A stretch of DNA of 64,000 bases from Siphonodentalium dalli (Eukaryota > Mollusca > Scaphopoda > Gadilida > Siphonodentaliidae), in assembly GCA_032622095.1 (NCBI GenBank), contig CP136063.1, positions 13,371,814 through 13,435,813 of the forward strand, in the 5' to 3' direction. Position numbers and translations under genes: made by a program. This document shows, piece by piece, positions 17,027 to 50,531 of the stretch. The notes beneath the pieces were generated by a model, which did not search any database, was not told the DNA's origin, and worked only from the letters and a program-made list of their open reading frames with translations. Positions within the stretch are counted from its first letter, which is position 1. Every line of letters begins with the position of its first letter.

Positions 17027-17234
17027 CTATATAACCTACATTTATTCTGTGTTAATGGATGTATACCGCGCTATATGACCTACAGTTATTCTGTGTTAAT
17101 GGATTTATACCGCGCTATATACCGGTACACAGTACACTGATATAACCTACAGTTATTATGTGTTAATGGATTTATACCGCGCGAAATAACCTACAGTTAT
17201 TCTGTGTTAATGGATGTATACCGCGCTATATAAC
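17027..17234 (+). repeat. 44-bp tandem repeat, insertion site of the retrotransposon
   Basis: Units of about 44 bp contain GCGCTATATAACCTACA and TTCTGTGTTAATGGAT, with 4-5 imperfect copies. The LTR element interrupts the last unit after ATAAC, and the rest of that unit resumes at 34831. Right-arm copies lie at about 50395-50531 and 51644-51750. Confidence 0.85.
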
Positions 17235-17455
17235 TGTAGCGGTTTTGGCCTCTTGTGTCACCGAGATCATCCGGAAACCCACGGACACCACTCGGGACGA
17301 CTCACGTGACCCGACTCTTCCCGAAGGTGACGTCATCCGGGAATTCTCTGCACTTCAACGACAGCCTTCAAACCGACAACATCGCTCCGCGCTCAAGACT
17401 TCTATAATAGGTAATTTCATTAGATAACATCACTTATAAACCCTAATCATGTTAT
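17235..17455 (+). repeat. 5' LTR
   Basis: The 221-bp LTR begins TGTAGCGGTTTTGG and ends CATGTTAT. It differs from the 3' LTR at GTGTC versus GTTTC and GTAATTT versus GTAACTT. Border placement follows equal LTR length and the 5-bp duplication. No obvious TATA box was identified with confidence. Confidence 0.93.
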
Positions 17456-19647
17456 ATTGGCGACGAGGTGTTTCGAATTTAACGTGCGTGAAATAAAATG
17501 TAAAGTAGAGTGTAAGTAAATTATAAATGAATTTCTGAATTTTTCTCTTGGAAAATTTTGGCGCGCCAAGCGCCGCCATCTTGCCTTCTTGCCCGAATTT
17601 TCGGCAATTTCCGGAAATGATGGGAATTTTCCAAGAACACGCGTAAAGCAACATAAACCATAAAGTAAACTAACATTCTATTATAAAACCTACATTTACA
17701 ATAATGCACTTGGTAATCTCGTATTTAATGGACATTTTTTCTTTCAGATAGGCCCAATGCCGACGATTAATTCTACACTGTTTCCCTGAATTTGAGTCGT
17801 GCATAGGAGCGCACAATTCATTGTTCAAATTCTTTCTGCAGTGTTTTGCCATGTTTTATTTATTTCATCGAAATAGGCCAACTTTGGAACTTGCACAACA
17901 CTGTTTAATTTTCTTGTCAATGTATTTCGTACTCTTATGATTCAATAAACGATTTGTTTTTTATGTTATTCTCTCGGCAGAAACCGGAATAACATTAGCA
18001 CCCACTAAATGATGTTTCGTTGGTTATCTCGAATATTCGCAACATTGAACATAGCAAATTTGCTTGTAATTTAAATGTAATTTAAAAGGTAAATTCTACG
18101 GGTGTCGCACTCTGGAGCCTTGCTGCTAAAATCACATAAATTGTTGTTGGAAATGCTGGGTGACATGTTTTATGTCACTTATGATATAGTGCGAATATTC
18201 GAAATACAGAAATGCTCATAATAAAACTTATTTTTGCAATAAGTACGATAATTCATTGAGAGCTGTTTTTGCGTGGTGGAATAACTGTCCGAAAGCAGCT
18301 ACTTGATGTAATAAATAAGTCTAAACAGTACTTTTATTTTCATGACATAATTAATTAACATAATATAACGAGGATGCTATCTCTGTTGTGGCGATCGCGC
18401 TTCGCAGGAATAGAACTTCCAATAAACTTGTTAAATTTCATAAAAGAGGTCAATTAGTAAATTAGACAGCGCGGAAGAGGGATTTAAATTTTTGCAATAA
18501 ACCTGGTATCCATTTTTTCGTCCATAAACTAGGTTATAATTAATTTGAATTCGTAGACTTATCTGGCACATTTTGTATTCGGTGTTCATGGATGACATGA
18601 CCACACACGCGTAATCTGTGGTTTTTTTTGTGCGCGATATAACTGTGCCAGTTAAATTAATAATTTTCAGCTGAATATTGTTGTTGTATGTAATGTATTA
18701 CTAGTAGCTGTCCAGTTCACACAAATAACTACTATCAAATTGTTTGAACTTTTTGTGATTTACATTTCTTGAAATTATCTTGTGATAAATAATTTGGTTA
18801 TTAATTTTGTGATTGTGATAAAGAATAATTGATAATATAAAGCATTGTGAACTGAACAGATTGCAGCAACCTATATTTATATTGTATTACCCATTGAACC
18901 CTACTTGTGTTGATGTGCAACCACTGGCACATGTCAAAAAAAGTACCCACTTCTCGAATCATGCCGTTCTCTTCAATTCTTCTCGAGCAAGAGACGCGGG
19001 TCTTGATGAACCTGATCTATTCCCTTTGGATTAATGCAGATTAATTTAATACTTTTTTTCAATTACTCTGCTATTCCGATAAGTTACAGTTACTTAGGAA
19101 GCCGAGCATCATAAGTGTAACGCACTTAAATCAGAATCAGTTAATCTGTTTCTAAACAGATTAATGTATATCACGTAAATTTTGTATTGTAATTGTTGTG
19201 TGATATACCCTCATAGATTAATTTGTTTTTGTGTAGTAAATTATTCAATTGTCTAAGTAAATGAGCAGCTTATAATTTATGTGTGATAATTGTTTTGGTA
19301 ATAAGATATTTTTGTATTAATTTATTTTTGCTGCTCGTAGATTAATTTTTATAAGATAAGATTATTATGAGGAATGTATTAATTTAAAAGGGAATAGCAT
19401 AACATCAGTATTCCAATTAATGAAGTCTTCACAGGTGTTACTCGCAGTCAATAATTAAAGCGGACGTTCCGTTTATTTTGCTAAAGTAATACCAGTGTGA
19501 TTTAGTTTCGACCGTCAGATAAACGCGGACAATCCGTTTGATAGGTTGAGAAAGGCTAATAAGACCAAAACTATCGAAGGCGACTATTAAAGGTAAGGCG
19601 GAAAATCCGTTTATTTTTACCAAAGCACAACCAGGTGAGTATACATA
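17456..19647 (+). other. Retrotransposon leader
   Basis: This 2.2-kb stretch contains no credible gene. A TGG-initiated candidate primer-binding site (TGGCGACGAGGTGTTTCG, 17458-17475) lies two bases after the LTR; I could not match it confidently to a particular tRNA. The end of the leader has three small hairpins (19461-19609) and a strong splice donor (CAG/GTGAGT, 19632-19640) just before the gag ATG. Confidence 0.7.
19461..19609 (+). promoter_or_regulatory. Three CGGA-NNN-TCCG mini-hairpins before gag
   Basis: CGGACGTTCCG (19461-19471), CGGACAATCCG (19526-19536) and CGGAAAATCCG (19599-19609) keep the same 4-bp stem with three different loops. Each is preceded by G and followed by TTT. The first and third sit in a longer duplicated segment. 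Their position just upstream of gag suggests a possible RNA packaging or translation signal. This is inference. Confidence 0.35.
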
Positions 19648-22362
19648 ATGGCAACCACCGGAGTGGAAATAAATCTTTGCTCGACCAAGGAGTTGTGTAA
19701 AATAGTAGGCATTTCCGATGATTCGGCAACAAAGATAGTACTCCATAGGGCACGAAAAGGTGATATCAGAGATATCAATGAATTGAGAGAGATACTCACC
19801 CCCCACCTATGTGCCAGAATTAAGGGGCCAATTGGCTATACAATAAGCAAGGAACAATTGGAAACCCAGAAGGAGCAGAGCGACAGCAGGGAGTACCAAG
19901 ATTTATCTCTTTCTGAGGAGGACTTGCAAGAACCCAAGTATTACAGCTCTCCAATCACTACGAGAAGTATAAAAGAAAGAGAAAGGGAAGAACATGTGGC
20001 CTCTTACAGAAAAGAAACAGAACATATGGCCTCTGTAAAAAGAGAAACACAGAGAGAGATGACGAAAAATGAAAAGAGGCAACAGGAATGCGAAGAGTAT
20101 AAAGATGAAGATGGAGAACAGGAAGAAAAAGACCTGCGAAGTGAGACAATCAGCCAGGAGCAAGGCGATATCCAACCAAGGGGCCAACAGGATAGTCGAG
20201 GAAATGAATTGGCTAGAGGGTGGAAATCGTATGAAGAACAGCATGGGGACAGGTATGATCGAGTAGAAGAGGAAAGATACAAGTGGCAAGGGAAAATGGC
20301 TAGTATGCAGAAAGAATTTGATAGAATGCAAAGGGATTTCGACCTAGAAATACGCCAAAAAGAAGACCAGCTTCAACAAGCTAACAGTGAGAATCGACTG
20401 GTAAGAAGAAGTTTGGGGAATGTGGAAGAAGAAAATAAAGATCTTAAAAGGGAAAAAGAAAGAACCGGAAAAGGGTGGGAGGAAATACACATACGGATGG
20501 ATAAGGAGGAAAGAGAAAATGAGTTCCTGAAAAGAGAAAATGAGTTCCTGAATAGAGAAAATGAGTCCCTGAAGAAAGCAATCAAGGAGAAAACACAAGA
20601 ATGTGAGTCCCTGAAAGAAGAAGGAACTTACTTGAAAGAAGAAAAGAGGGCTCAGGCTCAAAGTTATGAAGACAAGTTGAGGGACGAGAGAGATGGGCGC
20701 CGGAAGGATAAACAAAGCTATGAACAAGCTAGGGTGGTGCCCGAACCAAGACACCCCACCCATTTTCCTCCACCAATCTGGCAACAACCACCATTCATTC
20801 ATGGAGGCAATCAACAGTACACATACCCGTCTAACCAGGTGGCGACCCCAGCTATACAGATGCCACCAGCCACAATACCACCAGTGACACCAGCGGTACA
20901 GGCAGTGGTCGATCTAGGGAGACGGGAGAGGGAGCCGGAACGAAATGAAAGAAGGGAGAATGATGAACCAAGGAGATGGGGTGAGGACCGGGAGCATTAT
21001 AGAGAGGAACGTAATGACCGGGGAAGATATGATAGAAGGGACAGGATAGGGGTTGAGAAAATACCATCTCGACTAAAGTTCGATGGAACCTCCATGTGGT
21101 TGGTGTTTGAAAAGAGATTCGTCCATTTCTCCCAGCGCCAGAACTGGGAGGAGGAAGAAAAGAAAGAGAAACTGGTCTGGTGTTTGGAGAAGAAGGCGGC
21201 CGAATTCTGTGCGATGGTCGACCGAAAGGATGAAATGTCATATCAACAACTTCTGAGAGAACTCCGAAGCAGATATGAGGAACATGATCGTCCTGAGAAG
21301 GCCCAGACAGATCTAGCAGTGGCCAAGCAAAATACAGATGAACCTCTAGAGGACTGGGTAGACCGAGTCCAGAAGCTGTCAATACAGGCCTTCAGTGATG
21401 CGCCGGGGGCAGTCCAGCAGAGACAGGCAGTATTAAAGTTCTGCCAAGGACTACTGGACAAGGAAACAGGGCAACATGTTGCCACTTCCGCCCAGCCAAC
21501 CATTAAAATGGCAGTAGAAAAGGCGCAGCTCTTCCAGCAGACCACGCAGGCGATATACGGGAAGAGACTGAAGAAAGAGGTAAAGGCCACATGGGTAGAT
21601 TCGGATTCAGATTCGGATGGGGCCCAGATCAGCCAAGTGTATAGGGATCGGGACAATAGGGGACGAGGGAATGGAAGAAGGGTTTCCGACTTGGAGGATG
21701 GAAGAAGGAACAATTCCAGGTTCGACCGGAATTGGAGGTCAGAGAGATCTGAGGGTTCCAACAATTCCAGGTATGACCGGAATCAGAGGTCGGAGAGTCC
21801 GAACAATTCCAGGTATGACCGGAATCAGAGGTCGGAGAGTCCGAAGAACTCCGGGTATGACCGGAATTGGAGGTCGGAAAGTCCAAAGAACTCGGGGTAT
21901 GACCAAAATTCCCGATATAACCGGTCCCGAACAGAAAATACAGAAAAATACAGAAATACAGAAAATACAAAGCCGACAAATGATTCCACTCCATGGGGCA
22001 GGAGTGGAACTACAAGAGATGGAGACACTGTCAAAAACAGGACGTCCGCCAACCAATCCTCGGATGTCAACTCAAGGGTGAGATCACTAGAGGGAGGAAT
22101 GGGTGAGATGGCAGCGGACATTAAGAAGCTGATGGGCCTAGTAGAGGAGAAGTCAAGATACCGGAATTATTCCAACTATGGGGACAGATCGAGAAGCCCT
22201 TCACCTAGGCGAAATGGGGAATTGGTTTGCTTCAAATGTGAAAAACCAGGCCACTTTCGCCGTAACTGTCCCCAGAATGAACAACAGGACAAATTCCCGA
22301 AGAAAGTATCATTCAATAAGAACGAGGAGTTAAACGAGAGCGGGTCGTCCATCGAGGCCTAG
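19648..22362 (+). CDS. gag: Gag polyprotein (904 aa) with HhH-like N-terminus
   Basis: Structural protein expected to form the cytoplasmic particle and bind the element RNA. Residues about 6-60 (INLCSTKELCKIVGISDDSA, then INELREI) resemble a ComEA-type helix-hairpin-helix. Residues about 75-370 are a highly charged coiled coil with short direct repeats (LKRENEFL, LNRENESL). A proline-rich stretch follows at about 375-430. The Gag core is about 470-640 (RLKFDGTSMWLVFEKRF, LEDWVDRVQKLS). Tandem 14-residue repeats built on NNSRYDRNQRSESP occupy about 690-770. A CCHC zinc knuckle (CFKCEKPGHFRRNC) lies near residue 860. The start is the first ATG after the leader and just downstream of a splice donor. 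Pol lies in the -1 frame and its open frame overlaps the gag end (22266-22362). The length is well above the usual Gag size because of the coiled coil. Confidence 0.93.
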   Translation: MATTGVEINLCSTKELCKIVGISDDSATKIVLHRARKGDIRDINELREILTPHLCARIKGPIGYTISKEQLETQKEQSDSREYQDLSLSEEDLQEPKYYSSPITTRSIKEREREEHVASYRKETEHMASVKRETQREMTKNEKRQQECEEYKDEDGEQEEKDLRSETISQEQGDIQPRGQQDSRGNELARGWKSYEEQHGDRYDRVEEERYKWQGKMASMQKEFDRMQRDFDLEIRQKEDQLQQANSENRLVRRSLGNVEEENKDLKREKERTGKGWEEIHIRMDKEERENEFLKRENEFLNRENESLKKAIKEKTQECESLKEEGTYLKEEKRAQAQSYEDKLRDERDGRRKDKQSYEQARVVPEPRHPTHFPPPIWQQPPFIHGGNQQYTYPSNQVATPAIQMPPATIPPVTPAVQAVVDLGRREREPERNERRENDEPRRWGEDREHYREERNDRGRYDRRDRIGVEKIPSRLKFDGTSMWLVFEKRFVHFSQRQNWEEEEKKEKLVWCLEKKAAEFCAMVDRKDEMSYQQLLRELRSRYEEHDRPEKAQTDLAVAKQNTDEPLEDWVDRVQKLSIQAFSDAPGAVQQRQAVLKFCQGLLDKETGQHVATSAQPTIKMAVEKAQLFQQTTQAIYGKRLKKEVKATWVDSDSDSDGAQISQVYRDRDNRGRGNGRRVSDLEDGRRNNSRFDRNWRSERSEGSNNSRYDRNQRSESPNNSRYDRNQRSESPKNSGYDRNWRSESPKNSGYDQNSRYNRSRTENTEKYRNTENTKPTNDSTPWGRSGTTRDGDTVKNRTSANQSSDVNSRVRSLEGGMGEMAADIKKLMGLVEEKSRYRNYSNYGDRSRSPSPRRNGELVCFKCEKPGHFRRNCPQNEQQDKFPKKVSFNKNEELNESGSSIEA

Positions 22363-25300
22363 AAACGACCCGAATCAAAGAAGGCCCAGGCAAAGACAAC
22401 AAGCCTTCAGAACGTGGAAGCTCCATTATAAGTAGAGAGGGTAAGGCACAACCAAGTTGTAGAACTTATAGCCTGGAGGACGAAGAGTTCAATGCATCGA
22501 TGTTCAATGTTGACTCTGACCAAACAGGTAGTGGGTTCAAAGAAGTTGTGAGCAAGCCCGGGAACGAGGTAGGTACATCAAACCGCCCTAGCCCAATGGT
22601 GAAGCTGGACGATGCATCGTTATCCGATGCTCAGCCGGCTTACCAGGTGGATAGGGACATGAGTGGGCCTATCTTGATATCTGCCAATGAAAGAAATAAG
22701 TGGAGTAGACCAGAACCTAGGAAGGAACCGATAGGTGACGCAAGGGACGAAATACCCACGACTGGTAGAGGGGTAGAGCAAGTCGAAGAAAACTCGTGGA
22801 AGGGTGACGACGAAATCCTATCGGAACAGAAAACAGAATGGATCATGCCAGCTAACAGCATGAGTGGACCCCCTAGTCAAAGAAAGGCTGAGATCAAAGA
22901 GATAGGGAACTCAGAGGATCACGATGAAACGGATCTGGTAGATTCCCCAGAATTGGAAATAGCTCAGCCTAGCGAACCATCTCCGGGTACGCTAAACAAC
23001 GAAGAAGAACCCGTTGAATTCACGATCCAACAAGTTAGGGGAACCATGCTGTACATCCCAGTAGAAATCAATGGGAGCAGATTGAATGCCGTTGTTGATA
23101 GTGGTGCAGAAGTAACCATCATATCGGATAAGGCTTTCAAGAGGCTGGAGAAACCACCTGACATCCAGAAAAAGGCGAAGATGCATACGGCAGGCAGGAA
23201 TTTATGCATGAATGCGTGGATCACCCAGCCGACCAACTTGCTAATAGGGGGAAAAACATACAGCCACCCCTTATATGTTGCTCCCGTGGGCGATGATATG
23301 CTGTTGGGGTTGGATTTCATGAAGAAACATTCTGCCCGTATAAACCTAGACCGGGATATTATCGAATTGGGAGGAATCACTATCAAAATGGAACGCTTAG
23401 GGGATGCTGCCCATGATGGACAAATCCAAGTACGAGTTTCCAAGGCGACTGTGGTACCTCCAGGTCAGGTGCGCTTGTGCCAGGGTGTCATGGCCGAAAA
23501 TCTCAAACCATACATCCTGGAAGGAACGGAGCATCCTAGTATCATCATTCCGAGAACTGTTCACAGTGCCGGGAAAACCCCAGTGATCTGTCTCGTCAAC
23601 ACTTCAGAGAGATATATTAAATTCAAGCGAGGGCAAGTTATCGCCGCAGCATCTGAGGTGGAAGTATTGCGCTGTGACGGCGGCGCCAGTGTATCAGCAG
23701 TGCGAGTCGGAACAGAACCGTACAAAATCCCAGAACATCTGATGGATTTATACAATCGTTCAGCGGAAAATTTAGAGGCAAGCCAGCAGGACGCTCTGGC
23801 TCAACTCATAAGTGAGTACGCTGATGTTTTCGCAATAGACGAATATGATCTGGGGAACTTCACGGCAATGGAACACACTATTGATACCGGAGATGCTCTG
23901 CCCATTAAAATGAACCTCCGCCGAACCCCCGTGGCTTTTGTCAATGAAGAAAAACAGCTGTTGGACAAAATGCTGAGGGCCGGCGTGATTGAACCCAGCA
24001 CTTCAGAATGGGCAGCTGCACCAGTACTGATCCGGAAACGGGACGGCAGTATTCGCTGGTGCCTCGACTACCGCGGTCTGAACTCGGTGACTAAAAAAGA
24101 TGTCTGGCCCATTCCCCTGTTCTCAGAATGTGTGGATTTATTAAGCCAGAAACAGTATTTTAGCCATCTGGATGGAAATTCTGCGTATTGGCAGATTCCC
24201 ATTCGAGAAGAAGACCGCCACAAGACTGCTTTCCTGACAAAATACGGGACCTTCCATCACGTCCAACTCGCTTTCGGTCTTTGTAACGCGCCAAGTTGCT
24301 ATTCCAGGGCCATGAGCCTTGTGCTGCAGGGGTTAAACTGGAATATAGCATTGGCATTCTTAGACGACGTTCTGGTGATGGCGTCGGATTTTACTAGCCA
24401 CGTCGTCAACCTTAAGAGGGTCCTGGAAAGATTCCGGAAATACCAACTCCGCCTAAAACCCAAAAAGTGTGGCTTGTTTCAAAGAAAAACAGAATTCTTG
24501 GGGCGAACGATAGACGGCCAGGGCATGACGATGACAGATGCCTCCTGCAAGGTCATCGAGGAGTGGCCGACCCCTCGAAATAGCAAGGACGTAGAAAGAT
24601 TTTTGGGATTGGCAGGATACCACAGAATGTTCGTAAAGAACTTCTCGAAGCTCGCCGCCCCCCTACACCAGCTCACGGGGAAGAATCCAAAATTTGAATG
24701 GGGTTACGAGCAAGAAGAGGCTTTCCTTTCCTTAAGAGAAGCCCTTATGACACCCCCGGTTCTTGCTCTACCGACAATAGAGGACCCATTCATACTGGAT
24801 ACGGATGCCTCGGACGGGGCGATAGGCGCAGAGCTAATCCAAGTCCAGGAAGGGGTGGAGAAAGTCATTGCGTATGGAAGCATATCTTTGAGTCATGAGC
24901 AAAAGAACTATTGCACGACTCGTAAAGAATTACTGGCCGTGGTATTTTTCGCCAGGACGTTCCGGCACTATTTGCTGGGGCGACCTTTTGTGGTGCGAAC
25001 TGACCACGCCAGCCTGACATGGCTCCTACGCTTCAAGCACCCCCAAGGCCAGATTGCACGATGGCTGGAAGAACTGAGCCAATATCAAATGACAATTAAG
25101 CATCGCCCAGGAGCGCGTCATCAAAACGCAGACGCAATATCACGCCTAGTGGATGAAGATCCTTGTCATTGTTTCAAGGCAGGGGTGATATTAGAAGATT
25201 TGCCCTGTGGTGGGTGCAAATACTGCCAAAAGGCAGAAGAGAAATGGGGAGCGTTCATTGATTCGGTGGATGACGTGATCCCCTTGGCTCAGGTCCGGGC

Positions 25301-25988
25301 ACAGTCCATAAACTTGGAGCACCAAGTTATGGACGTGACGTGTCCCATGCTGTGGCCATGGGATCCAGGGGGGTCAAGAATGAAAGAACACCGGACGGAA
25401 ATAAGGGAACTTACCTTAATTCCCGACTGGGGTTCGGAACTAGGATCCCACCCTACCGTGACCTGTGTTGCGAAAGTGACAAATGGGGAGGAAATCTCCC
25501 ACCAAGTTGGGGTAGGTGTTGCGAAAGCGACAATAGGGGAAGTTCAAGGGAACCCCGAATCCGGGTTAATAAAGGTAAGTGCGACCGACTTAGGAAAAGT
25601 CCATTTTATCGGTTCCATTGACATACCCCATATGGAAATCATTACGGTGAGTCAGGTCGTGGCAGACGCATGCCCGCTTCAACTGTATACGGCTGACGAC
25701 CTGAAAGAAGCACAAGGCGAGGACGTGGATTTACACAAAATTATAGAGTGGGTACAACAGAAGAAGGATCCTGAAGAGGGAGAATTATTTAGATGCAGTC
25801 CTTGGGTGAAATATCTGTGGATAAATAAAGATCGCTTGAAGATGAGAGAGGGAGTACTCTGGATGATAAACAGACAAGAGCAGACAGTCAGAGTTCTTCC
25901 TTGGAATTTACAAGGTGAAGCGATAAGAGTGCCACGATTTACCAGCATCAGGGCACCAAGGGATGGAAAGAACGTTGGAAAGAGCTAA
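22266..25988 (+). CDS. pol: Pol part 1: protease, reverse transcriptase, RNase H
   Basis: This is the -1 frame relative to gag. It is open from 22266 and its first ATG is 22500, so fusion by -1 frameshift or internal initiation are both possible. Residue numbers are from 22500. The aspartic protease has VVDSGAEVTII near 198-208. RT begins near 495 (WCLDYRGLNSVTKKDVWPIP) and has HLDGNSAYWQI and the catalytic FLDD box near 620. RNase H has DTDASDGAIGAEL near 765 and RTDHASLTWLL near 840. The catalytic residues I can place are intact. The N-terminal 180 residues are acidic and unassigned. The frame diverges near 25926, just before the integrase zinc domain, which is read in the next frame, and stops at 25988. 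The break is either an inactivating indel or, less likely, a recoding site. Confidence 0.9.
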
Positions 25989-27408
25989 ACAGAATTTCAC
26001 GTGGTACCACATGTCAGAAAGCGTCCGCCAATATGTTTCGGGGTGTCAACAGTGCAATGCAAGTAAGAAGTTGAACCGAAAAGCAAAGAACCCCATGATT
26101 ATGTTTCATTCAGGTTACCCCATGGAGAGAGTTCATCTAGACTTTCTGGGACCGCTCCCAGCCACGGATCGTGGCAATGAGCATATCCTGGTGATGGTCG
26201 ATCAATTCACTAAATGGGTGGAATGCGTACCGTTACCTAACCAGACTGCGGAAACGACTGCCCAGGCAGCCGTGAACGAGTTTTTTACTAGGTTCGGGTA
26301 CCCGTTCCAAATATTTACTGACCAGGGTGCCAATTTCCAAAGTAAATTGTTTACGGCACTATGTGACCTGATGAAGATACATAAGACTAAAACTACAGCC
26401 TATAGACCATCGGCGAATGGGCAATGTGAGAATCACAACAAGACCTTGATGGCAGCTGTTAGATGCTTTGTGGAGAAATGCCCAAATCAATGGGACAAGT
26501 ACGTTTCTCAGATAGCTGGGGCACTACGGTCATCTGTGAATCGATCCACAGGATTCACGCCGAACAAATTAATGTTGGGGAGGGAAGTGAACCATCCAGC
26601 TGCATTGATGTTCGGAGATCCCAGCCCGGGAGAAGAAGAAGTCCACGAGTATCTAAAGGTCTTGAGTAAGAATATCCGTGAGGCTCACGATATAGCAAGA
26701 AAAACTCTGGTAACCACGCAGAAGAAAATGAAGCGAGATTATGACACCAAAATATTACAGAAGGTATACCATCCTGGGGAATTAGTGTATATTTTGGACA
26801 CAGCCGTCATAAAGGGAAAACCCAAGAAGCTTCAGCCGGTATGGAAAGGTCCGGGAATTGTGGTTGACCAGATAACACCCTTCTTGTATAAAGTGAAGTT
26901 GCAAAAGGCCCAATTCGTCACTAATCACGACAAGATGAAGCTATGCCGGAACCGGGAAATCCCACCTTGGCTGAAGACCTTTGTGGATAATGGGTTCAGC
27001 TTGGGGGAGGTTGTGGATAGTTATTCATCAGTCCTAAAGGGTAAAGGGAAAAAGGTGAGTCCGGACTGGCAGGGGCCGAAGATTATCACTCAGAAATTAT
27101 CACCTTTTCTGTACGAGGCAAAAGACCAAACCATCGTTAGTCGTCTTCTGCCTGACCGACTAAGAAAACACAAAGGTAAGATGCCGACATGGATAAAAGC
27201 CATCCGCAAGGAACTACCCATTTTGGGAACCAAGACGCGCTCCGAATATTGTTTCTGTAGAAAGCCGGACAAAGGAACATTTATGATTCAGTGTAACACC
27301 TGCGAAGAATGGTTTCATGGGCCTTGCGTGCGAATCTCCAAAGAAGACGCGAGACATCTGGATATTTACAGTTGTCGGAACTGCCTAAATCAAAGCGGAA
27401 AAACGTAG
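25927..27408 (+). CDS. pol: Pol part 2: integrase with duplicated GPY/F-like region and C-terminal PHD finger
   Basis: This frame opens at 25927 after an upstream stop; its first ATG is 25963. It starts inside the HHCC zinc domain (His codons near 25933 and 25954, CQQC near 26048). The catalytic core has HLDFLGP, FTDQGANF and GQCENHNKTL, with 35 residues between the second Asp and the Glu, as in DD35E integrases. Two GPY/F-like modules follow (PVWKGPGIVVDQITPFLYKV and PDWQGPKIITQKLSPFLYEA). The last 50 residues are a PHD finger (YCFCRKPDKGTFMIQCNTC, EEWFHGPC, CRNC), with a C4HC3 pattern and Tyr, Met and Trp at positions expected for a methyl-lysine cage. Integrase joins element cDNA to the genome, and the PHD finger could steer it to modified H3 tails. 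The frame break upstream means this part is not continuous with RT. Confidence 0.9.
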   Translation, partial: ECHDLPASGHQGMERTLERAKQNFTWYHMSESVRQYVSGCQQCNASKKLNRKAKNPMIMFHSGYPMERVHLDFLGPLPATDRGNEHILVMVDQFTKWVECVPLPNQTAETTAQAAVNEFFTRFGYPFQIFTDQGANFQSKLFTALCDLMKIHKTKTTAYRPSANGQCENHNKTLMAAVRCFVEKCPNQWDKYVSQIAGALRSSVNRSTGFTPNKLMLGREVNHPAALMFGDPSPGEEEVHEYLKVLSKNIREAHDIARKTLVTTQKKMKRDYDTKILQKVYHPGELVYILDTAVIKGKPKKLQPVWKGPGIVVDQITPFLYKVKLQKAQFVTNHDKMKLCRNREIPPWLKTFVDNGFSLGEVVDSYSSVLKGKGKKVSPDWQGPKIITQKLSPFLYEAKDQTIVSRLLPDRLRKHKGKMPTWIKAIRKELPILGTKTRSEYCFCRKPDKGTFMIQCNTCEEWFHGPCVRISKEDARHLDIYSCRNCLNQSGKT

Positions 27409-28842
27409 GGTTGAGCGCGGTTCACTAAATCTCCGGACATGTTATCCCCGTGAATGCCTATCCGACTGGTAAAGCTTGTAACCAAATTAGATCCGTACGA
27501 GTTTATTGGTTAAGATAGGCTAGATGAAAATGTAACAGGTAATGCCTGATGATCAGGTTTACTATCATTTAAAGGGATATACGTAAATTAACCGGGGACC
27601 GGTAACGCCTAACAATCATTAATACGTCAAAATTACAATCTTATTTGATATACAGTATCAAGGAATAGAGGTGGAATGGGCCCTTAAAGATGCCTTTGCT
27701 TTTCAGGCTCGAACACACGAGGATTCCATCCATCTTCCAGTCTTCCGTCTTCCAGTTGTCCGTCTTCCAGTCTTCCGTAGCCACGCGTCGTCCATCCTCG
27801 CAAGTCTACAGTTTTCCAGTCTTCCGCTGCCACAAGTCTGCAATCTTCTGCGGCCACAAGCCTTCCGTCTTCCCATCTTCTGCTGTCAACGTCTTCGGTT
27901 GTCAAACGTCTTTCAACTGCTCACAGCACATAATATATGTTGGCTTCAAAACGTAACGACCCAACCTTCTTGAAACCTTAAACCGTCAGTATCTTCGAAG
28001 AAAACCAACCTTCTTGAAATCTTCAAGCGTCAGTATCTTCGAAGAAAACCAATCTTCTTGAAAACGTCAAGCATCAGTATCTTCAAAGAAGATCACCCAA
28101 CATCGTGTTAAGTAATCTGCATCAGCATCTTCAAAGAAGATCATCCAACATCCAACATCCAACATCTGCATCAGCATCAGTATCTTCAAAGAAGACCCTC
28201 CAGTTCCCGTTAAGTAGGATACATCGGTGTCTTGAAAGAAGATCAGCTAAATTTCTGTTTAAACTGTTTAAAGTGACATTTAATCTGGACCATGTCTCTA
28301 AAGAAGATCGTCCACCTTCCGGTGAAAACTTATTGAAATTCATATTGTTACCTGGATCAGCATCTCGAGAAAAGATCAGTATCAGTGTCAGAATAGTCAC
28401 TCATAGCTGAGGCGTTGTCCATCTCAACGCTCAAGCTGACCGCAGATCAGAGTTACACTTTCCCGTGGTTCATCAGTATCCAAATCTGCAGCGGTTTCAA
28501 CGAACGGCAGGTTACTGAAATCTGGGCAGAAAGCTCCAATGTTGGTTGTATGTCGATTGTGTCCCTATCTGTAGTTTTGGAGGATAATGAGTTTGCAGAT
28601 TGTAATGAATTATTGAAAATTGGTAAAGAAATATTCTATATTAAGTTGTCATAAGGAGGTAATTTTAATATCTCATCGTAATAGGTCTTTTCGGTTAGGC
28701 TATTGGTATTGTTCTTCTGTTTACACGGTTAAAAATGTTGCCGTCGTAATTCAATCTCTTATGGGTACTGTATTACTGTACTGTGTTTTGATTACCTTGA
28801 TCTCCATCTCCCTAGTTCTTGTAAAGTTTTCCTCCATAAAAT
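27409..28842 (+). repeat. Repeat-rich spacer between pol and ORF3
   Basis: No gene is visible. At 27725-27905 lies a CTTCC/GTCTTCCG-type microsatellite-like run. At 27960-28400 lie 5-8 imperfect copies of a unit of about 45-65 bp built on CATCAGTATCTTCAAAGAAGA. A pyrimidine tract ending in AG (TCTCCATCTCCCTAG, 28801-28815) is a good splice-acceptor candidate 28 bases before the ORF3 start. Confidence 0.7.
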
Positions 28843-31800
28843 ATGGACGTGGATAAGGAAAATATCAGCCCTAGAAGGGATTGGCGCCCAAAATTGTCTA
28901 TCACGGAGAGGGTCCAGAAGGCATGTCGCAACCACTCGTTGATGGATGTCACCACCTTGTTCAATGAGATTGGGTTTGATGATAACCTGCACGCCCCTCA
29001 GATTGAGGATCTGACCCTGATGCAATATCGGCTCGCGGTGTACCAGAAAAACGCTCGATGGATCACGCGATGCAGACAAGATGCTAGACTATTTTTGGAT
29101 GATACCTGGATAGATAACAAGCTTCCAAGTCTCGACGGAAAACAGAAAATTTCTCGCCAGCGCCCGGCTACAAGACGCCCTACTGAAACAGAAACCATAG
29201 ATACCAGAGATCACACCACCGTCCTTTATGAACTCTCTTCCTCTCGAAGAAACGACACCGAGGTTAGAAATTCTTCATATTCTTCCACGTCTTCCTCAGT
29301 AAAGCCACCGCCTTCCGCAGCATCATCTTCACAGTCATCCGTACTGCTTAACCAGGAGCAGCCTCCTTCTTCCAGACCTTCCGGTCAGAGACCTGCCATA
29401 CCTTCTGCGTCGATGTCTTCTTCCTCGTTAGATCAACCGTTGCGACCGTACCGCGTACTGCGACCACGCTCCGAAGCCGAAAGGAACCGGTCTCACTCAC
29501 ATCAAAGACAAAGTCATTCCTCTCATAGAGAATCTCGACAACCGCAGGGTGCATCTCGTGCAGATAGACGCCATTCACCACGTATTTCCAGAAACCATGG
29601 ACGGCGGGACTCTAGGGCAACCATTCCCTATCGCCATTCTCCAGTAAGGAAATCTTCAATGCGCCACTCACCATATCCGAGATCTCAGGGGTCAGGGAGG
29701 GCACAGCCTTATGAACCACCCCTTCGAGAACGTCAACGTTCGGTCGCACCCTTTCGATCACATCAGGGTAACATGTCATTGCGGAGATCAAGGTCTTCTC
29801 CTTCTCGTAGGAATCCATCCAGTCTCGACTCGCGAGATACTGTGATTCCTTCAGCTCCGCCTCCTCGAAGGAATCCATCCAGTCTCGACTCGCGAGATAT
29901 TGTGATTCCTTCAGCTCAGTCTTCTCGTAGGAATCCGCCCAGTCTCGACTCCCGAGATATTGGGATTCCTTCAGCTCAGTCTTTTCGTAGGAATCCGCCC
30001 CGTCTCGACTCCCGAGATATTGGGATTCCTTCATCTCAGTCTTCTTCCCAGAAGAATCAGTCTCGTCTCGACTCCCGAGACATTGGGATTCCTCCGTTTC
30101 AGTCTTCCCGGATAGACCCGTCTCATCTTGACTCCCAGGATAGTGGGGTCCATCCATCACCTTTTATCTTGCGGAATCCTCCCCGTCTCGAATCTCGAGG
30201 CTCTGAGGCTTCACCATTATATTCTTCTATTCTGAAGAATCCTCCCCGTCTCGAATCTCGAGGCTCTGAGGTTGCACCATTAAATAATTCTATTATGAGG
30301 AATTCGCCCAATCTCGATTCTCGAGATTCTGAGGGCCCATCATCATATTCTTCTGTTCTGGGGAACCTACCCCGTCTCGAATCCCGAGATTCTGAGGTTT
30401 CCAGTTTTAACGTCATGCCATTGACTGGGGGAGCTACGACAGAGATCAATACCTCTGTTAAATCTACAGATTCTCGGGTAATTCTTCCCATGGAGTTACT
30501 GACTGAGGAAGTCAATTCTCTTCCTTCTTTGGAGACCTCTCTTGTTGAGCCAGGTGAGAAGCAGGTTAGCAGGAAAGTTCCACCTCGTAACGACACCAAG
30601 TGTCCTCTGTGCGGTCAACCGTCTAAGAAGATGAAACGGCATTGCATGGTCCATCATCTCCCTCAAACAGTCTGGGAATTTAGGACAGCAGATCAACCCC
30701 AACCGGAAGATTGGGAATTTCTTTTGCTCTTCCTTGCTAAACGTCTTAACTGTAGTCTCGCGGAGTTGATTGGAAAGTGTAACAACAGCTCCGTAAGGAT
30801 GCCGTCTTCGAGCATCACACCCGATTGTTTGACCATGATGGCAGAATTTCAGTCTTTTCTTCACACACAGTATGATTGGCCAGTGGTGGACAAGTTTTCT
30901 CTCCATCCCATAAACTCTGTGGCCGTGCTTCTGCACTGGAGACCTCTTTGCAATTTACTACTCCAAATTCCCCTGGAGGGACAGAAGAGTTTTCGTAATC
31001 TTTGCCCAGGTCGCCTTTGCAATTTTGTAACCAGATCTGGGAAAGCTCGACTGAACCAGCAGCATCTGACCGCTGAATTGAACCTGACTAACGTAAAGAA
31101 GTCCGATGGAGTACCCATATCCACGAAGAAGAAACCGGTTTATCCGAATCTCCACATCCAGATATCAGGCGAGTCTTTTCCACCGCCCCATAAACCCCAG
31201 ATAGAATGCGGACCTCCCCGGATTGTCAGCTGTTCCCCTCCAACTGCAGATCCTGCGATTTCAACGCTCCCCCCACCTTCTGAGGTTAAGATCAGCCACT
31301 CAACAGGTTCTGACAAGACTGTTCCACCTGTCCCGCAACCACCAATCTACACTCCAGATGCTGTTTCTACAGTTCTGGATCCAGGTGTACTTACTGTGGA
31401 TGCTGTACGGACAGTTCCGATTCTCTCGGAATCTCCCACTGGGTCAATGGACACGACCCTGGTTCTGGGAAGTAACCCTCCCCTTACACCGGAGGTCAGC
31501 GACTCTGCCAACGCGGATAGTATTCTTGGGAGCCCGTCAGGCCAGTGGCCTCCCCTCAGTGTTCCGCAGAATAGGATCAGCCGAATCACTCTTCCTATTC
31601 TTCCCCCACCTCGGGATTTTGGGCTAGCTAGAATGGCTGTAGATTCACACTTCCATTTAGATCGCTTGCATGATTGTCTTAGAGGCTATCCGAAATTTGA
31701 CATAGACGACATGCTCCAATATCGACCTTCGCCGTTCCCGACGACTCCTATCAACCTTATAGGTGGAGTGATGATCTTCTGTGATCCCTCCACTTACCCG

Positions 31801-32463
31801 GTTGACATCCGTGTTGATACCCCGTTTAAGGCGGCCGTTGGTCTCCATCCAAAGAAAGCCGGTCTTTATTCATCTTACCATAAACGTCTCGATGAATTGT
31901 TTGCACATCCCGGTACGGTCGCAATTGGCGAAATTGGACTGGACCGGACTATGGCACCTAGCTACTGGGAGCAACAAGATTCTGTCTTGAGGGATATCGT
32001 CAAGTCTGCAGTACTATATCAGAAGCCCATAGTTCTTCATTTACGAGGTCTTGCGAATTTCCCTGCTGATGTCTATGCCCGAGGACACAAGATTGTCTCC
32101 GACGTCTGTCCTCCTAACCAACTAATTCATCTTCACTGCTTCAATGCTGGCGTGGAGGAGTTCCAACAGTGGAGCAACTCTTTTCCCCATTGCTACTTTG
32201 GTTTTACGGCTGCTGTGACATTTTTCAACGTGTCTCAGAAAAGGGCGTTGCAAGCCATACCTTCTTCCCGTCTTTTGTTGGAAACAGACTCTCCCTACTT
32301 TGGTCAACCTTGGGGAGCCGAAATCAGTAGCCCCGCCTATATTGGAAATGTTGCGCGAGTCGTATCCGACATCCGGAACGAAAGTCTTCAGGACATCTTA
32401 CAAGCAACGATTCTGAATACTAGCCGGTTTTACGGAACACCTGTTCCGGGGAACTTCCTTTAA
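28843..32463 (+). CDS. ORF3: Arg/Ser-rich protein with C-terminal TatD nuclease domain (1206 aa)
   Basis: This is the third large sense ORF of the retrotransposon, in the position env or accessory genes occupy. Residues 1-95 form a moderately conserved-looking unassigned region (MDVDKENISPRRDW). About 110-320 is Ser/Arg/Pro-rich. About 320-520 has roughly ten tandem 18-21-residue repeats (RRNPPSLDSRDIGIPSAQSS-like). A C2H2-like zinc motif (CPLCGQPSKKMKRHCMVHH) is near 587. The TatD domain spans about 931-1200: DSHFHLDR (HxH metal ligands), GEIGLDR (Glu, about 1029), LHLRG (His, about 1066), HLHCF (His, about 1096) and ETDSPY (Asp, about 1147). All expected metal ligands are present. TatD enzymes are Mg-dependent DNases, and the layout recalls animal TATDN2. 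Its role in the element is unknown; cDNA or RNA-DNA hybrid processing is conceivable. Expression is probably by splicing or an internal promoter. Confidence 0.92.
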   Translation: MDVDKENISPRRDWRPKLSITERVQKACRNHSLMDVTTLFNEIGFDDNLHAPQIEDLTLMQYRLAVYQKNARWITRCRQDARLFLDDTWIDNKLPSLDGKQKISRQRPATRRPTETETIDTRDHTTVLYELSSSRRNDTEVRNSSYSSTSSSVKPPPSAASSSQSSVLLNQEQPPSSRPSGQRPAIPSASMSSSSLDQPLRPYRVLRPRSEAERNRSHSHQRQSHSSHRESRQPQGASRADRRHSPRISRNHGRRDSRATIPYRHSPVRKSSMRHSPYPRSQGSGRAQPYEPPLRERQRSVAPFRSHQGNMSLRRSRSSPSRRNPSSLDSRDTVIPSAPPPRRNPSSLDSRDIVIPSAQSSRRNPPSLDSRDIGIPSAQSFRRNPPRLDSRDIGIPSSQSSSQKNQSRLDSRDIGIPPFQSSRIDPSHLDSQDSGVHPSPFILRNPPRLESRGSEASPLYSSILKNPPRLESRGSEVAPLNNSIMRNSPNLDSRDSEGPSSYSSVLGNLPRLESRDSEVSSFNVMPLTGGATTEINTSVKSTDSRVILPMELLTEEVNSLPSLETSLVEPGEKQVSRKVPPRNDTKCPLCGQPSKKMKRHCMVHHLPQTVWEFRTADQPQPEDWEFLLLFLAKRLNCSLAELIGKCNNSSVRMPSSSITPDCLTMMAEFQSFLHTQYDWPVVDKFSLHPINSVAVLLHWRPLCNLLLQIPLEGQKSFRNLCPGRLCNFVTRSGKARLNQQHLTAELNLTNVKKSDGVPISTKKKPVYPNLHIQISGESFPPPHKPQIECGPPRIVSCSPPTADPAISTLPPPSEVKISHSTGSDKTVPPVPQPPIYTPDAVSTVLDPGVLTVDAVRTVPILSESPTGSMDTTLVLGSNPPLTPEVSDSANADSILGSPSGQWPPLSVPQNRISRITLPILPPPRDFGLARMAVDSHFHLDRLHDCLRGYPKFDIDDMLQYRPSPFPTTPINLIGGVMIFCDPSTYPVDIRVDTPFKAAVGLHPKKAGLYSSYHKRLDELFAHPGTVAIGEIGLDRTMAPSYWEQQDSVLRDIVKSAVLYQKPIVLHLRGLANFPADVYARGHKIVSDVCPPNQLIHLHCFNAGVEEFQQWSNSFPHCYFGFTAAVTFFNVSQKRALQAIPSSRLLLETDSPYFGQPWGAEISSPAYIGNVARVVSDIRNESLQDILQATILNTSRFYGTPVPGNFL
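29806..30400 (+). repeat. About 60-bp in-frame tandem repeats in ORF3
   Basis: About ten units contain AATCC...CGTCTCGACTCCCGAGATA-type sequence, with lengths that are multiples of three so the frame is kept. They encode the Asp/Arg/Ser repeat of ORF3. Differences between units are clustered in the second half of each unit. Confidence 0.85.
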
Positions 32464-34590
32464 TATTCTCTCCCTCAGTCGGGACCAATCGCCACATCGG
32501 CGTTTCTTTGTGTATTATATTGTAATGTTTCAACTAGCCGGACCGATGATGTAATCATCATTCCTATTTTTCATGGTAGAATTATCATCTTCCCCTTTAG
32601 TAGAATTCCTGTATATATTCTGGAACTTCTTGGACTAGACGGACCCATCATGATTCCTGTTTTCAATAACGTTGGAAACCAATTAATTTGTTAAATGTTT
32701 GAGTATTCTTCCATGTATTTCCCCCGTAGGCTCACTAAACAAGTCTGAGGTGACTGAATCAAATTGGATAGTATTGTTGGGTGTATGGAAGCAATCACGA
32801 GTATCTGTATTGTTTATTTAGTTAGGAAGTAATAATGGGATTCTATATTCATAAGTTAACATGGTTTATTATAAAGTATTATATATCACATTAAGTTTGT
32901 CAAGTTGAAACCAAACAGACCCCCTATTCTATTTAACACAGAGGTTATTAATCACATTAATTCATAAGTAAGCATAATAAATGGTAATTTCCACCTGTCA
33001 GCCATGGTGTCAGAAAGAGTGCGTCTTTCTTGTTCAGTGTCCAGTTCTGTTTCCTCTGTCTTTGGAGACACAGGGAGTCCTTTCTACCTCCCTATTTTGG
33101 CCAAGCCCCTGGACATCTTTTCTTAATCACACCACTGTCTTTATGCTATTTTTGGCACTACAACGCGGGGATCCGTGTTTGCTTCGTCGCCAATGAAGCC
33201 AAACAGGAGTCTACATTCATATTTAGACATAGTTTATTCTATACACTAGATGTCATTATAAATGGTATACAGTCATATTCAACATGTCTGCCAATATCGG
33301 ACATTATATTCAGTCAACAACATGGTTTATTCTATACATAAGTCACAAACCAAAACAGGACATTATATTGTTTATTAACATGGTTTATTCTATGTATTAA
33401 TACCAGATGTCACAGTAAAACAACATGTCAGCCATATGACGTGTGTTCTTGTCGGGATTCAGTTCTGTTCTAAAATAATAAAAGGAATCTACTCTGTATA
33501 TAATATGGTCAATAAAGTAATAGGACATTGAATTCTCTATTTAACCTAGTTCGTTATAATAGCAAGAATGGGTCTTGCTCGGTCAGCGATCAGTTATGTT
33601 TTGTCATACTGGGTCGCTAAGATTTTGTAAATATGTTATGAGTTTGTCTGATCCGGCCCGAGGAACTATTGTAGATGCGAGTTTCTCGTTCTGCTGGTCC
33701 TCCTTGGTATTGAGCTTGTCCTTTTCGCTGAGAAGAAGTCTTCATTCTCCTTGTCGGACAGCCTTGCCCACCAGATGCCGGCCTGGAAGCGAGCACATCG
33801 TTCCATATATTCTTTGTTAATGCACTCGAGAGAGGAAACCGCTCCACAACAATCTTGGGTAACGAGGTCACCCGACCCAGACTGACATGAGGAAGGAACC
33901 CCCATGAAGACTCCCTAGTCTGATGTACTGGTTCCAGATATCATCTTTGTCACCATAATCCGTCCGAACCAAGAGCGATATGAGAAAAGAACCCCAAATG
34001 AAGACTTCCTAGTCTGATGTAGTGGTTCTCTATATCATCTTTGCCGCCTCAATCCGTCCGAACCATGACTAACACAGGAAAGGAATCCCGATGAAGACTC
34101 TTGGGTCTGATGTATTGATTCCCGGTATCGTCTATACCACCGTAATTCGCGAATCACAACGAATAGCAAAGGCACTAGTCTAGTTGGAAGGATCAAGGCC
34201 CTGATGACGACGGTCGGCGTTTACCCGAAGATTTAAGCGGAGTAGAACCCTCAAGGGAGCATCATGTTGTACATCTGTATATTCTGCATTATTTCCTGTT
34301 CCACGGAGCATCCGAATAAACTCATTTCGTCCACGAAGCGTTCCGAGGAATCCAATTCTTCTACAGAGCATCTGAATCGACTCATTCCTCCATGGAGCCT
34401 CCAAATGAACTCATTTCTTCCGCTGAGCATTCCAGGAAATTCAACCCTTCTACGGAGCATCCGGAGGGACTCATTTCTTCTATGGAGCATCCGGGGTCTT
34501 TCATTTCTTCAACGGAGCCTCCCGATAAACTCACGTCTCCTACTAAATGTCTGGGTTATCTCATTCCACCGGATATGGAGCCAATTCTTC
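32464..34590 (+). repeat. Repeat-rich 3' region of the retrotransposon
   Basis: No gene is supported. From 32860 to 33520 several imperfect copies of ATGGTTTATTCTATA-like sequence occur. From about 33880 to 34150 there are three copies of a unit of about 100 bp (GATGAAGACT...TCTGATGTA...CCGTCCGAACCA). From about 34297 to 34560 there are about nine copies of a 30-bp unit (TCATTTCTTC-ACGGAGCATCCG). Confidence 0.75.
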
Positions 34591-34604
34591 AAAGTGAGGG
34601 GGAA
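34591..34604 (+). promoter_or_regulatory. Polypurine tract
   Basis: AAAGTGAGGGGGAA abuts the 3' LTR directly, as required for plus-strand priming. It has one pyrimidine. Confidence 0.8.
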
Positions 34605-34825
34605 TGTAGCGGTTTTGGCCTCTTGTTTCACCGAGATCATCCGGAAACCCACGGACACCACTCGGGACGACTCACGTGACCCGACTCTTCCCGAAGGTGA
34701 CGTCATCCGGGAATTCTCTGCACTTCAACGACAGCCTTCAAACCGACAACATCGCTCCGCGCTCAAGACTTCTATAATAGGTAACTTCATTAGATAACAT
34801 CACTTATAAACCCTAATCATGTTAT
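34605..34825 (+). repeat. 3' LTR
   Basis: 221 bp, identical to the 5' LTR except for two substitutions. The target duplication ATAAC follows at 34826-34830, then the interrupted 44-bp repeat unit resumes. Confidence 0.93.
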
Positions 34826-34938
34826 ATAACCTACAGTTATTCGGTGTTAATGGATTTTGATGCTTATTAAATTAGATTTCGGCTATTTATAGACTGCTGA
34901 TTCACGAGATTAGCTGATCTGTATGATAATTCTACGCG

Positions 34939-35057
34939 ATGGGAGATGTTAAGATGACTGATCACGAGGTCAGCTGCTCAATCGACAATTCTACGCGATG
35001 GGAGATGTTAACATGACTGTTCACGAGGTCAGCTGATCTATAGGACAATTCAACGCG
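34939..35057 (+). repeat. 59/60-bp repeats carrying copies of the zinc-finger start
   Basis: Two units with ATGGGAGATGTTAA-ATGACTG precede the true ORF start at 35058, which is the same motif in a third unit. ATG positions are 34939, 34998 and 35058. The upstream ATGs reach stops within a unit. The right-arm equivalent lies at about 50189-50310. Confidence 0.75.
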
Positions 35058-38530: not shown

Positions 38531-38578
38531 ATTGGAGACTGGAGAAGGATTATCATGAACGAATTTTATCTAAATAAT

Positions 38579-50394: not shown

Positions 50395-50531
50395 ATTAAC
50401 ACCGAATAACTGTAGGTTATATAGCGCGGTATACATCCATTAACACAGAATAACTGTAGGTTATTTCGCGCGGTATAAATCCATTAACACATAATAACTG
50501 TAGGTTATATCAGTGTACTGTGTACCGGTAT
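50395..50531 (-). repeat. 44-bp repeats with the retrotransposon empty site (right arm)
   Basis: The sequence CGAATAACTGTAGGTTATATAG near 50403 is the uninterrupted form of the unit split by the LTR element in the left arm. The array is itself interrupted at 50532 by the 1.1-kb element and resumes at 51644. Confidence 0.85.

What the first reader, a model, noticed from the sequence alone, without database searches (positions are those of the whole stretch)
28843..32463. A Ty3/gypsy retrotransposon that carries its own TatD-family nuclease
Seen: a 1206-aa sense ORF lies between integrase and the polypurine tract, inside borders proved by LTRs, target duplication and an empty site. Its C-terminal 270 residues have HxH, Glu, His, His and Asp in TatD order with every metal ligand present. 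Known: TatD enzymes are Mg-dependent DNases, and animal TATDN2 has a Ser/Arg-rich N-terminus like this one. Inference: a captured host nuclease now serves the element, for example by processing cDNA ends or RNA-DNA hybrids or by countering host defence. Ty3/gypsy elements normally carry env, RNase H duplicates or nothing here.
Basis: partly seen in the sequence, partly recalled or inferred. Interest (0 to 1): 0.88.

Follow-up and report, generated by a model that had tools for sequence, protein, structure and literature searches.

The report
Retrotransposons that carry a TatD nuclease
An unnamed, probably animal genome holds a diverse group of jumping genes (LTR retrotransposons) that carry an extra gene for an enzyme of the TatD nuclease family, in some members fused to an RNA-repair enzyme, which suggests that these elements bring their own tools for processing DNA or RNA.

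Summary
A 17.6-kb LTR element (17235-34824) has 220-bp LTRs (99.1%), a 5-6-bp target duplication and an empty site in a 99.6% identical inverted duplicate. ORF3 (1206 codons) ends in a TatD domain (Pfam 8.7e-38) with all six metal ligands.

ORF3 is not a passenger. The window's 2.2-Gb genome holds at least 146 TatD matches. I fetched 20: 17 lie behind RT-RNase H-integrase in the window's order, in 12 families (RT 45-77% identical to the window's). Of 89 best integrase places, 66 have a listed TatD downstream on the same strand, none upstream or opposite; 5 of 5 sampled of the other 23 have it too. TatD co-diverges with RT (r 0.79, ten families) and is under purifying selection. Strong 3' splice-site-like sequences sit just before ORF3 in 6 of 12 families (0.34 expected): probably an env-like spliced mRNA.

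New: ORF3 of four families also encodes a Tpt1/KptA RNA 2'-phosphotransferase domain with its catalytic tetrad. Proteins with the same zinc-finger/WR/TatD layout occur in sea urchins.

Unproven: activity, substrate, and a host source. I found no paper describing such elements in the library searched.

The parts
17229..17234 (.). target-site duplication, left copy (TATAAC)
   Evidence: right copy 34825-34830; one copy at the empty site near 50416
17235..17454 (+). 5' LTR (TG...TA, 220 bp)
   Evidence: 99.1% identical to 34605-34824; edge read
17458..17470 (+). primer-binding-site-like sequence TGGCGACGAGG..., whose first 11 bases recur after the 5' LTR of L025
   Evidence: the tRNA was not identified
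19635..19640 (+). 5' splice-site-like CAG|GTGAGT, best-scoring of 912 GT sites in the element, 13 nt before the gag ATG
   Evidence: recalled position weights
19648..22362 (+). gag ORF (904 aa): helix-hairpin-helix motif, capsid-like region, CCHC zinc knuckle
22500..25988 (+). pol ORF part 1: protease, RT, RNase H (frame ends early in this copy)
   Evidence: one frame in other copies
25963..27408 (+). pol ORF part 2: integrase with C-terminal PHD finger (27250-27384)
28796..28816 (+). 3' splice-site-like tract ending CTAG|T, 27 nt before the ORF3 ATG (rank 22 of 1217)
   Evidence: similar placement in sister families
28843..32463 (+). ORF3 (1206 aa)
29795..30412 (+). in-frame 60/63-nt tandem repeats within ORF3
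30601..30957 (+). ORF3 zinc finger (CPLC...H...HHLP) plus 'NSVAVLLHWRPL' block; related sequence in all 12 representative families and in 5 of 5 outside proteins aligned
31642..32436 (+). ORF3 C-terminal TatD domain, six metal ligands
34591..34604 (+). polypurine tract
34605..34824 (+). 3' LTR
34825..34830 (.). target-site duplication, right copy
50411..50421 (-). empty insertion site on the inverted duplicate arm (approximate)

Best explanation
A lineage of Ty3/gypsy-order LTR retrotransposons (gag / PR-RT-RH-IN-PHD / ORF3) carries ORF3 as a regular third gene. Shown by sequence: position, wide conservation, co-divergence with pol, purifying selection on the TatD domain, and a complete metal site. 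Inferred from splice-site-like sequences: ORF3 is made from a spliced, env-like subgenomic mRNA, so it acts in trans rather than as part of Gag-Pol. Inferred, and my commitment: the product is an accessory nucleic-acid-end enzyme. It binds through its zinc finger/WR block and uses TatD (in four families together with Tpt1) to trim and repair ends of the element's own RNA, tRNA primer, RNA-DNA hybrid or cDNA, including ends made by host nucleases, so that reverse transcription and integration can finish. My separate odds: integral and selected third gene about 0.95; spliced mRNA about 0.8; active nuclease about 0.85; end trimming/repair of the element's own nucleic acids rather than another role about 0.5.
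For: 146 TatD matches in the own genome (a lower bound), 17 of them full-length at 97-100% without stops (my count). 17 of 20 fetched loci have RT-RH-IN upstream in the same order. 66 of 89 best IN places have a TatD of the list 2-8 kb downstream on the same strand, 0 upstream or opposite; 5 of 5 sampled of the other 23 have it too. LTRs flank it in three other families, with 4-5-bp duplications as I read them. Six ligands kept in 20 of 20 own-genome domains whose segment is complete (12 families) and in 7 of 7 outside proteins. Ten copies: 19 synonymous, 6 non-synonymous, p 3.6e-8; three other families: 6 and 0. Mantel r RT-TatD 0.794 over ten families, 0 of 10,000 permutations. 3' splice-site-like sequence in the top 1.5% within 30 nt of the first ORF3 ATG in 6 of 12 families, 0.34 expected, 0 of 20,000. 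Tpt1 domain in ORF3 of four families, E 6.8e-32 to 7.5e-48. Zinc finger/WR block related in all 12 families.
Against: No activity, transcript or particle data. On the donor side only the window has an outstanding site before gag; of the three other leaders examined the best sites before gag score 6.8 (L024), 6.9 (L025) and 8.2 (L027) against 12.8, and L027's best lies inside gag. L017, L023, L026 and L028 lack a good acceptor within 30 nt (none in the top 8%). The ten copies were the best-scoring loci of a protein search, which favours few non-synonymous changes. ORF3 outside TatD evolves fast, the Tpt1 domain is present only in some families, and within families it shows 2 synonymous and 5 non-synonymous changes. 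That pattern also fits a host-conflict protein.
Confidence: 0.48

Rival explanations
1. ORF3 is a counter-defence protein: TatD (with Tpt1 in some families) destroys or edits host nucleic acids such as small RNAs, R-loops or sensed DNA/RNA ends, much as retroviral accessory proteins act on host factors (parallel recalled).
For: Env position with a probable separate spliced mRNA; TatD diverges more than RT (34-62% against 48-77% identity between families); variable N-terminal half and patchy Tpt1 domain. [quoted passage not shown]
Against: Strict conservation of the TatD domain within families and its presence throughout the sampled lineage fit a constant substrate at least as well; no host target is identified.
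Confidence: 0.33
2. ORF3 keeps the TatD fold as a binding or structural (for example capsid- or chromatin-associated) module without nuclease activity.
For: The zinc finger/WR block and the PHD finger of IN show that binding modules are part of this lineage.
Against: All six metal ligands kept in 20 of 20 own-genome domains whose segment is complete and in 7 of 7 outside proteins.
Confidence: 0.08
3. Chance passenger: a host gene captured by, or nested in, this one copy.
For: In the window family ORF3 lies 1.4 kb behind IN, further than in most other families.
Against: Present in 12 diverged families, within about 105 nt of the end of pol in 8 of the 10 families with an unbroken pol end, behind 66 of 89 IN places, under purifying selection.
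Confidence: 0.01
4. TatD ORFs are a host multigene family that merely expanded near retrotransposons, or an assembly artefact.
For: The sea urchin relatives are annotated as ordinary genes and their genomic context could not be read; L016, L019 and L033 hold TatD without RT upstream.
Against: Fixed order and strand relative to IN with no contrary case among the listed matches; ORF3 inside the LTRs in four families; RT, IN and TatD trees share their pairs.
Confidence: 0.02

Closest known systems
Ty3/gypsy (Metaviridae) LTR retrotransposons, including env-bearing errantivirus-like ones
   Same: LTRs, PBS-like and PPT sites, PR-RT-RH-IN order, 4-6-bp target duplications, third ORF in the env position with probable splicing
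   Different: ORF3 has no Pfam env match but a TatD domain (and Tpt1 in four families); IN ends in a PHD finger; the window element is 17.6 kb. The position of its RT was not tested against reference elements.
TatD nucleases (E. coli TatD/YcfH, human TATDN1, TATDN3)
   Same: predicted fold and all six metal ligands
   Different: fused to a long N-terminal part with a zinc finger/WR block, and encoded by a retroelement
TATDN2 (RNA strand of R-loops, per PMC12754012 passages)
   Same: long N-terminal extension before a C-terminal TatD (recalled for TATDN2)
   Different: no TATDN2 sequence was available for comparison; whether it has the zinc finger/WR block was not tested
Tpt1/KptA/TRPT1 RNA 2'-phosphotransferases
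   Same: the L022 ORF3 matches tRNA 2'-phosphotransferase 1 (7yw3, E 1e-30); Arg-His-Arg-Arg tetrad kept in 4 of 4 families as I read the alignment (tetrad from PMC6333775 passages)
   Different: within a retroelement ORF, N-terminal to TatD; absent from the window's ORF3
'Uncharacterized' sea urchin proteins LOC121426781, LOC135154056 (Lytechinus) and LOC105441695 (Strongylocentrotus)
   Same: zinc finger, N..A...WR block, TatD in the same order
   Different: genomic context not readable here, so it is unknown whether they lie in LTR elements

Membership tests
Ty3/gypsy LTR retrotransposon | two LTRs with target-site duplication | tested here: met
   window; three more families
Ty3/gypsy LTR retrotransposon | domain order protease-RT-RNase H-integrase | tested here: met
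   window; sister families. The protease was not detected in L021 and L022, and in L030 by tblastn only
Ty3/gypsy LTR retrotransposon | RT groups with Metaviridae in a reference tree | not tested
   no reference element set at hand
Ty3/gypsy LTR retrotransposon | primer-binding site complementary to a tRNA | tested here: inconclusive
   TGGCG within a few bases of the 5' LTR end in the window and three families; tRNA not identified
env-bearing gypsy (errantivirus-like) | third ORF behind pol made from a spliced mRNA | tested here: inconclusive
   position met; strong acceptor-like sites in 6 of 12 families; donor clear only in the window; no RNA data
env-bearing gypsy (errantivirus-like) | third ORF encodes an envelope glycoprotein | tested here: not met
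   Pfam finds TatD and Tpt1 (and one weak Amidohydro_2 match over TatD), no env family, in the window and 8 sister ORF3s; transmembrane segments were not computed
TatD nuclease | profile match and TatD fold | tested here: met
TatD nuclease | metal ligands HxH, E, H, H, D | tested here: met
   20 of 20 own-genome domains whose segment is complete and 7 of 7 outside proteins; the L033 and P0009 segments lack the HxH part and were set aside
TatD nuclease | metal-dependent nuclease activity | not testable with these tools
   needs a biochemical assay
TATDN2 | groups with animal TATDN2 rather than TATDN1/3 or bacterial TatD | not tested
   no TATDN2 sequence retrieved; ORF3 domains group apart from three viral-contig TatDs and one bacterial-type TatD (100/99)
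Tpt1/KptA (sister families only) | Arg-His-Arg-Arg tetrad | tested here: met
   4 of 4 families (tetrad from PMC6333775)

The most novel reading that the evidence does not exclude
These elements carry a nucleic-acid end-repair cassette: a TatD nuclease, in a subset joined to an NAD+-dependent Tpt1 RNA 2'-phosphotransferase, expressed from a spliced mRNA. It would mend or edit RNA, primer or cDNA ends damaged by host defences, a retroelement counterpart of the RNA-repair genes with which some phages undo host RNA cleavage (that phage parallel is recalled). Many 'uncharacterized TatD' genes of marine invertebrates would be genes of, or taken from, this lineage.
Probability: 0.33. Interest if true: 0.93.

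Novelty: new variant of a known kind. Interest (0 to 1): 0.85.

Why it matters
LTR retrotransposons are usually described with gag, pol and at most env or small accessory genes (recalled). A whole lineage with a conserved nuclease gene, and in part an RNA-repair domain, suggests that some retroelements supply their own end-processing enzymes. That makes it directly testable how these enzymes act on reverse-transcription intermediates or on host defence. It also warns that some 'TATDN2-like' gene calls in invertebrate genomes may be retroelement genes. One example consistent with this, untested here, is a giant squid figure legend that lists TATDN2, POGK and ZMYM1 among non-Hox genes inside the Hox cluster (PMC6962438 passage).

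Tried and rejected
Nested insertion: rejected, because in 8 of the 10 families with an unbroken pol end ORF3 starts within about 105 nt of it (the window family and L017 have 1.5 and 0.6 kb), and in the window no direct repeat of 40 nt or more has one copy on each side of ORF3 and no inverted repeat of 60 nt or more was found. Passenger or host family: rejected. Viral contigs: no relative of the integrase and none with the first TatD query; the three TatD loci found with the profile group with the bacterial-type TatD away from ORF3 in the tree, and their gene context was not read. Relation to TATDN2: left open for lack of sequences. Structure of the zinc finger/WR block: model too weak (mean pLDDT 59.7), so no fold search was made with it. 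The scan for other Tpt1 genes of this genome (PF01885) did not complete. Literature: searches listed nothing on TatD or Tpt1 in LTR elements, as far as the listings showed (one search listed 12 of 5,086); the library holds open-licence PMC papers only, and Repbase was not searched. An early reading of the middle Tpt1 arginine as 'IRA' was dropped; I now place it in the K-x-R motif.
Full report
What is there. The window holds one 17.6-kb LTR element, 17235-34824. Its LTRs are 99.1% identical. The insertion split a site that is still empty in the inverted duplicate arm of the same window (34823-42245 against 50423-43000, 99.56% identical), where one copy of TATAAC stands in place of two. Inside are gag (helix-hairpin-helix motif, CCHC), protease, RT, RNase H, integrase with a C-terminal PHD finger, then ORF3 of 1206 codons, then the polypurine tract. 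ORF3's C-terminus is a TatD domain (Pfam 8.7e-38; PDB YcfH by sequence 1.2e-13; by fold 3.2e-12, on a model whose mean pLDDT is 54.2 but mostly above 80 in the TatD part) with all six metal ligands. Pol is in two frames in this copy and in one frame in other copies.

Is it a regular part of the element? The TatD domain was searched against the window's own genome (2.23 Gb, 9 contigs). One search gives 146 matches (144 of 562 candidates scored, so a lower bound). By my count of its rows, 17 are full length, 97-100% identical and without stops, and 10 of these 17 lie in open frames of 1005 codons or more; 7 more full-length matches stand at 61-62%. 25 of the 146 rows list a stop inside the match, in the L020 group the stop at the end of the frame. 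I chose 20 matches across the identity range and fetched 10 kb at each. 17 of 20 carry RT, RNase H and integrase upstream on the same strand in the window's order; the misses are L016 (rearranged), L019 and L033. They form 12 families, counting near-identical RTs as one, with RTs 45-77% identical to the window's. In 8 of the 10 families whose pol ends unbroken, ORF3 starts within about 105 nt of that end; the window family has 1.5 kb and L017 0.6 kb between them, and in L023 and L032 pol is broken.

The reverse test starts from the integrase. One search scored 89 of 4565 candidates and lists 145 rows; I kept 89 places and dropped 56 rows that are second pieces, mostly the PHD part. 66 of 89 have a TatD match downstream on the same strand, at 2.0-8.0 kb; none of the listed TatD matches lies upstream or on the other strand within 12 kb. 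Of the 23 without one I sampled 5, chosen for long open pol frames, at the expected place: 5 of 5 hold TatD. The other 18 were not checked. No TatD-less relative was therefore shown, but both lists are capped at the best matches, so where in the Ty3/gypsy tree the gene was gained is unknown.

Borders in other families. Three further families have LTR pairs around gag-pol-ORF3: L024 (379 bp, 100%), L025 (279 bp, 100%) and L027 (about 266 bp, 99.6%), with target duplications that I read as AATC, TATA and AGTAG and spans of about 12.2, 10.8 and 11.9 kb. By LTR identity these insertions are recent, as in the window. L025 has lost most of the stretch between IN and TatD that its sister L026 keeps.

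Selection and co-divergence. In ten copies of the window family the TatD part shows 19 synonymous and 6 non-synonymous changes (pN/pS 0.10, p 3.6e-8). The ten were the best-scoring loci of a protein search, which favours few non-synonymous changes. Other close pairs agree: dN/dS 0.15, 0.30, 0.19, 0.18 and 0.00, with one pair undefined, and 6 synonymous against 0 non-synonymous changes in four copy pairs of three other families. Between families synonymous sites are saturated. With unbroken domain hits of ten families, distances of TatD and RT correlate at r 0.794 (0 of 10,000 permutations), against 0.702 for RT with integrase. The pairs window/L017, L020/L021, L022/L026 and L027/L028, and the group of L024, L030, L027 and L028, recur in RT, integrase and TatD trees; the deeper forks differ or stay open. 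A first run gave similar results but used joined RT or integrase segments for some rows and is not relied on for those.

Expression. With recalled splice-site weights, the best 5' splice-site-like sequence of the whole window element (of 912) lies 13 nt before the gag ATG, and a good 3' site (rank 22 of 1217) lies 27 nt before the ORF3 ATG. Across 12 families (the window's stood in for by its sister copy L014), 6 have a 3' site in the top 1.5% within 30 nt of the first ORF3 ATG, against 0.34 expected from other ATGs of the same loci (0 of 20,000 draws); 4 of 12 in the top 0.5%, 8 of 12 in the top 3.5%. The 30-nt limit and the thresholds were set. Against this, four families have none within the top 8% there (L017, L023, L026, L028), and in the three other leaders examined the best 5' sites before gag are weaker (6.8, 6.9 and 8.2 against 12.8), with L027's best inside gag. 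I infer a spliced env-like mRNA; no RNA data were available.

A second enzyme. Pfam on ORF3 of eight of the eleven sister families found TatD in 8 of 8 and, N-terminal to it, a Tpt1/KptA RNA 2'-phosphotransferase domain in four: L020, L021, L022 and L026 (E 2.5e-41, 6.8e-32, 7.5e-48, 1.6e-44). The L022 domain matches tRNA 2'-phosphotransferase 1 (7yw3, E 1e-30). The Arg-His-Arg-Arg tetrad named in PMC6333775 (passages) is kept in 4 of 4 as I read the alignment. With these four domains as queries no match (E up to 0.01) was found in the window or in the other 16 fetched loci. Copy pairs show 2 synonymous and 5 non-synonymous changes, too few to judge selection. [quoted passage not shown]

The N-terminal block. 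Between the variable N-terminus and TatD lies a zinc-finger-like motif followed by an N..A...WR block. In 8 own-genome families and 5 of the 7 outside proteins aligned, one Cys, two His, a Pro, an Ala and Trp-Arg are invariant. The window's block did not find L024, L027, L028 and L032 by tblastn, but ORF3s of other families do by blastp (best E 2.0e-25, 1.6e-16, 1.8e-14 and 1.0e-14 with L030). By strict patterns the zinc motif is seen in 11 of 12 families (not L032) and the WR motif in 10 of 12 (not L024, L028).

Outside this genome. Three protein searches, each limited to about 8,000 candidates, found seven proteins with a related TatD domain and, where the N-terminal part is present, the same layout: two in Lytechinus, one in Strongylocentrotus (six member sequences), three from ENA contigs and a shorter one from another public source; an eighth hit, P0009, is a bacterial-type TatD. 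Their genomic context could not be read. In the TatD tree the seven group with the ORF3 domains, apart from three viral-contig TatDs and P0009 (100/99). Host TATDN1, 2 and 3 could not be included.

How it most likely works. Shown: an integral, selected, TatD-bearing third gene. Inferred: trans-acting expression by splicing, nuclease activity, and use on nucleic-acid ends. Because TatD is joined to an RNA-repair domain in four families, I favour trimming and repair of the element's own RNA, primer, hybrid or cDNA ends, about even with all other roles together; attack on host nucleic acids is the main rival, favoured by the separate mRNA and by the fast change of ORF3 outside TatD.

Novelty. The element is an LTR retrotransposon of Ty3/gypsy domain order, so it is a new variant of a known kind, with an accessory enzyme gene for which I found no description in the library searched (search listings, plus passages of PMC6962438, PMC12754012 and PMC6333775 and the outline with abstract of PMC12440569).

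Noticed in passing
L020, L021, L022, L026 (ORF3): Tpt1/KptA RNA 2'-phosphotransferase domain N-terminal to TatD in four sister families, tetrad kept in 4 of 4.
   Followed up: partly
34823-42245 and 43000-50423: Large inverted duplication, 99.56% identical, with a C2H2 zinc-finger ORF in one arm (35058-36212) and an ORF of equal length in the other (49034-50188); the element borders only one arm.
   Followed up: partly
about 50531-51640: About 1.1 kb present only in the duplicate arm, with ends that look like terminal inverted repeats (CAGTCCCTAGGAATCACTG / CAGTGATTCCTAGGACTG): probably a non-autonomous DNA transposon.
   Followed up: no
27250-27384 and pol of L020, L022, L026, L030: PHD finger at the C-terminus of the integrase in every pol scanned with Pfam, the window and 4 of 4 sister families.
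   Followed up: partly
19648-19800: Helix-hairpin-helix motif (PF12836, E 8.7e-8) at the N-terminus of gag in the window; not reported in the four sister gags scanned, some of which are probably cut short by the locus edge.
   Followed up: no
29795-30412: In-frame 60/63-nt tandem repeats build part of the Ser/Arg-rich stretch of ORF3.
   Followed up: no
2352-4842 and 5166-7655: Another inverted repeat pair, 99.5% identical, with long ORFs that match no Pfam family at E 0.01.
   Followed up: no
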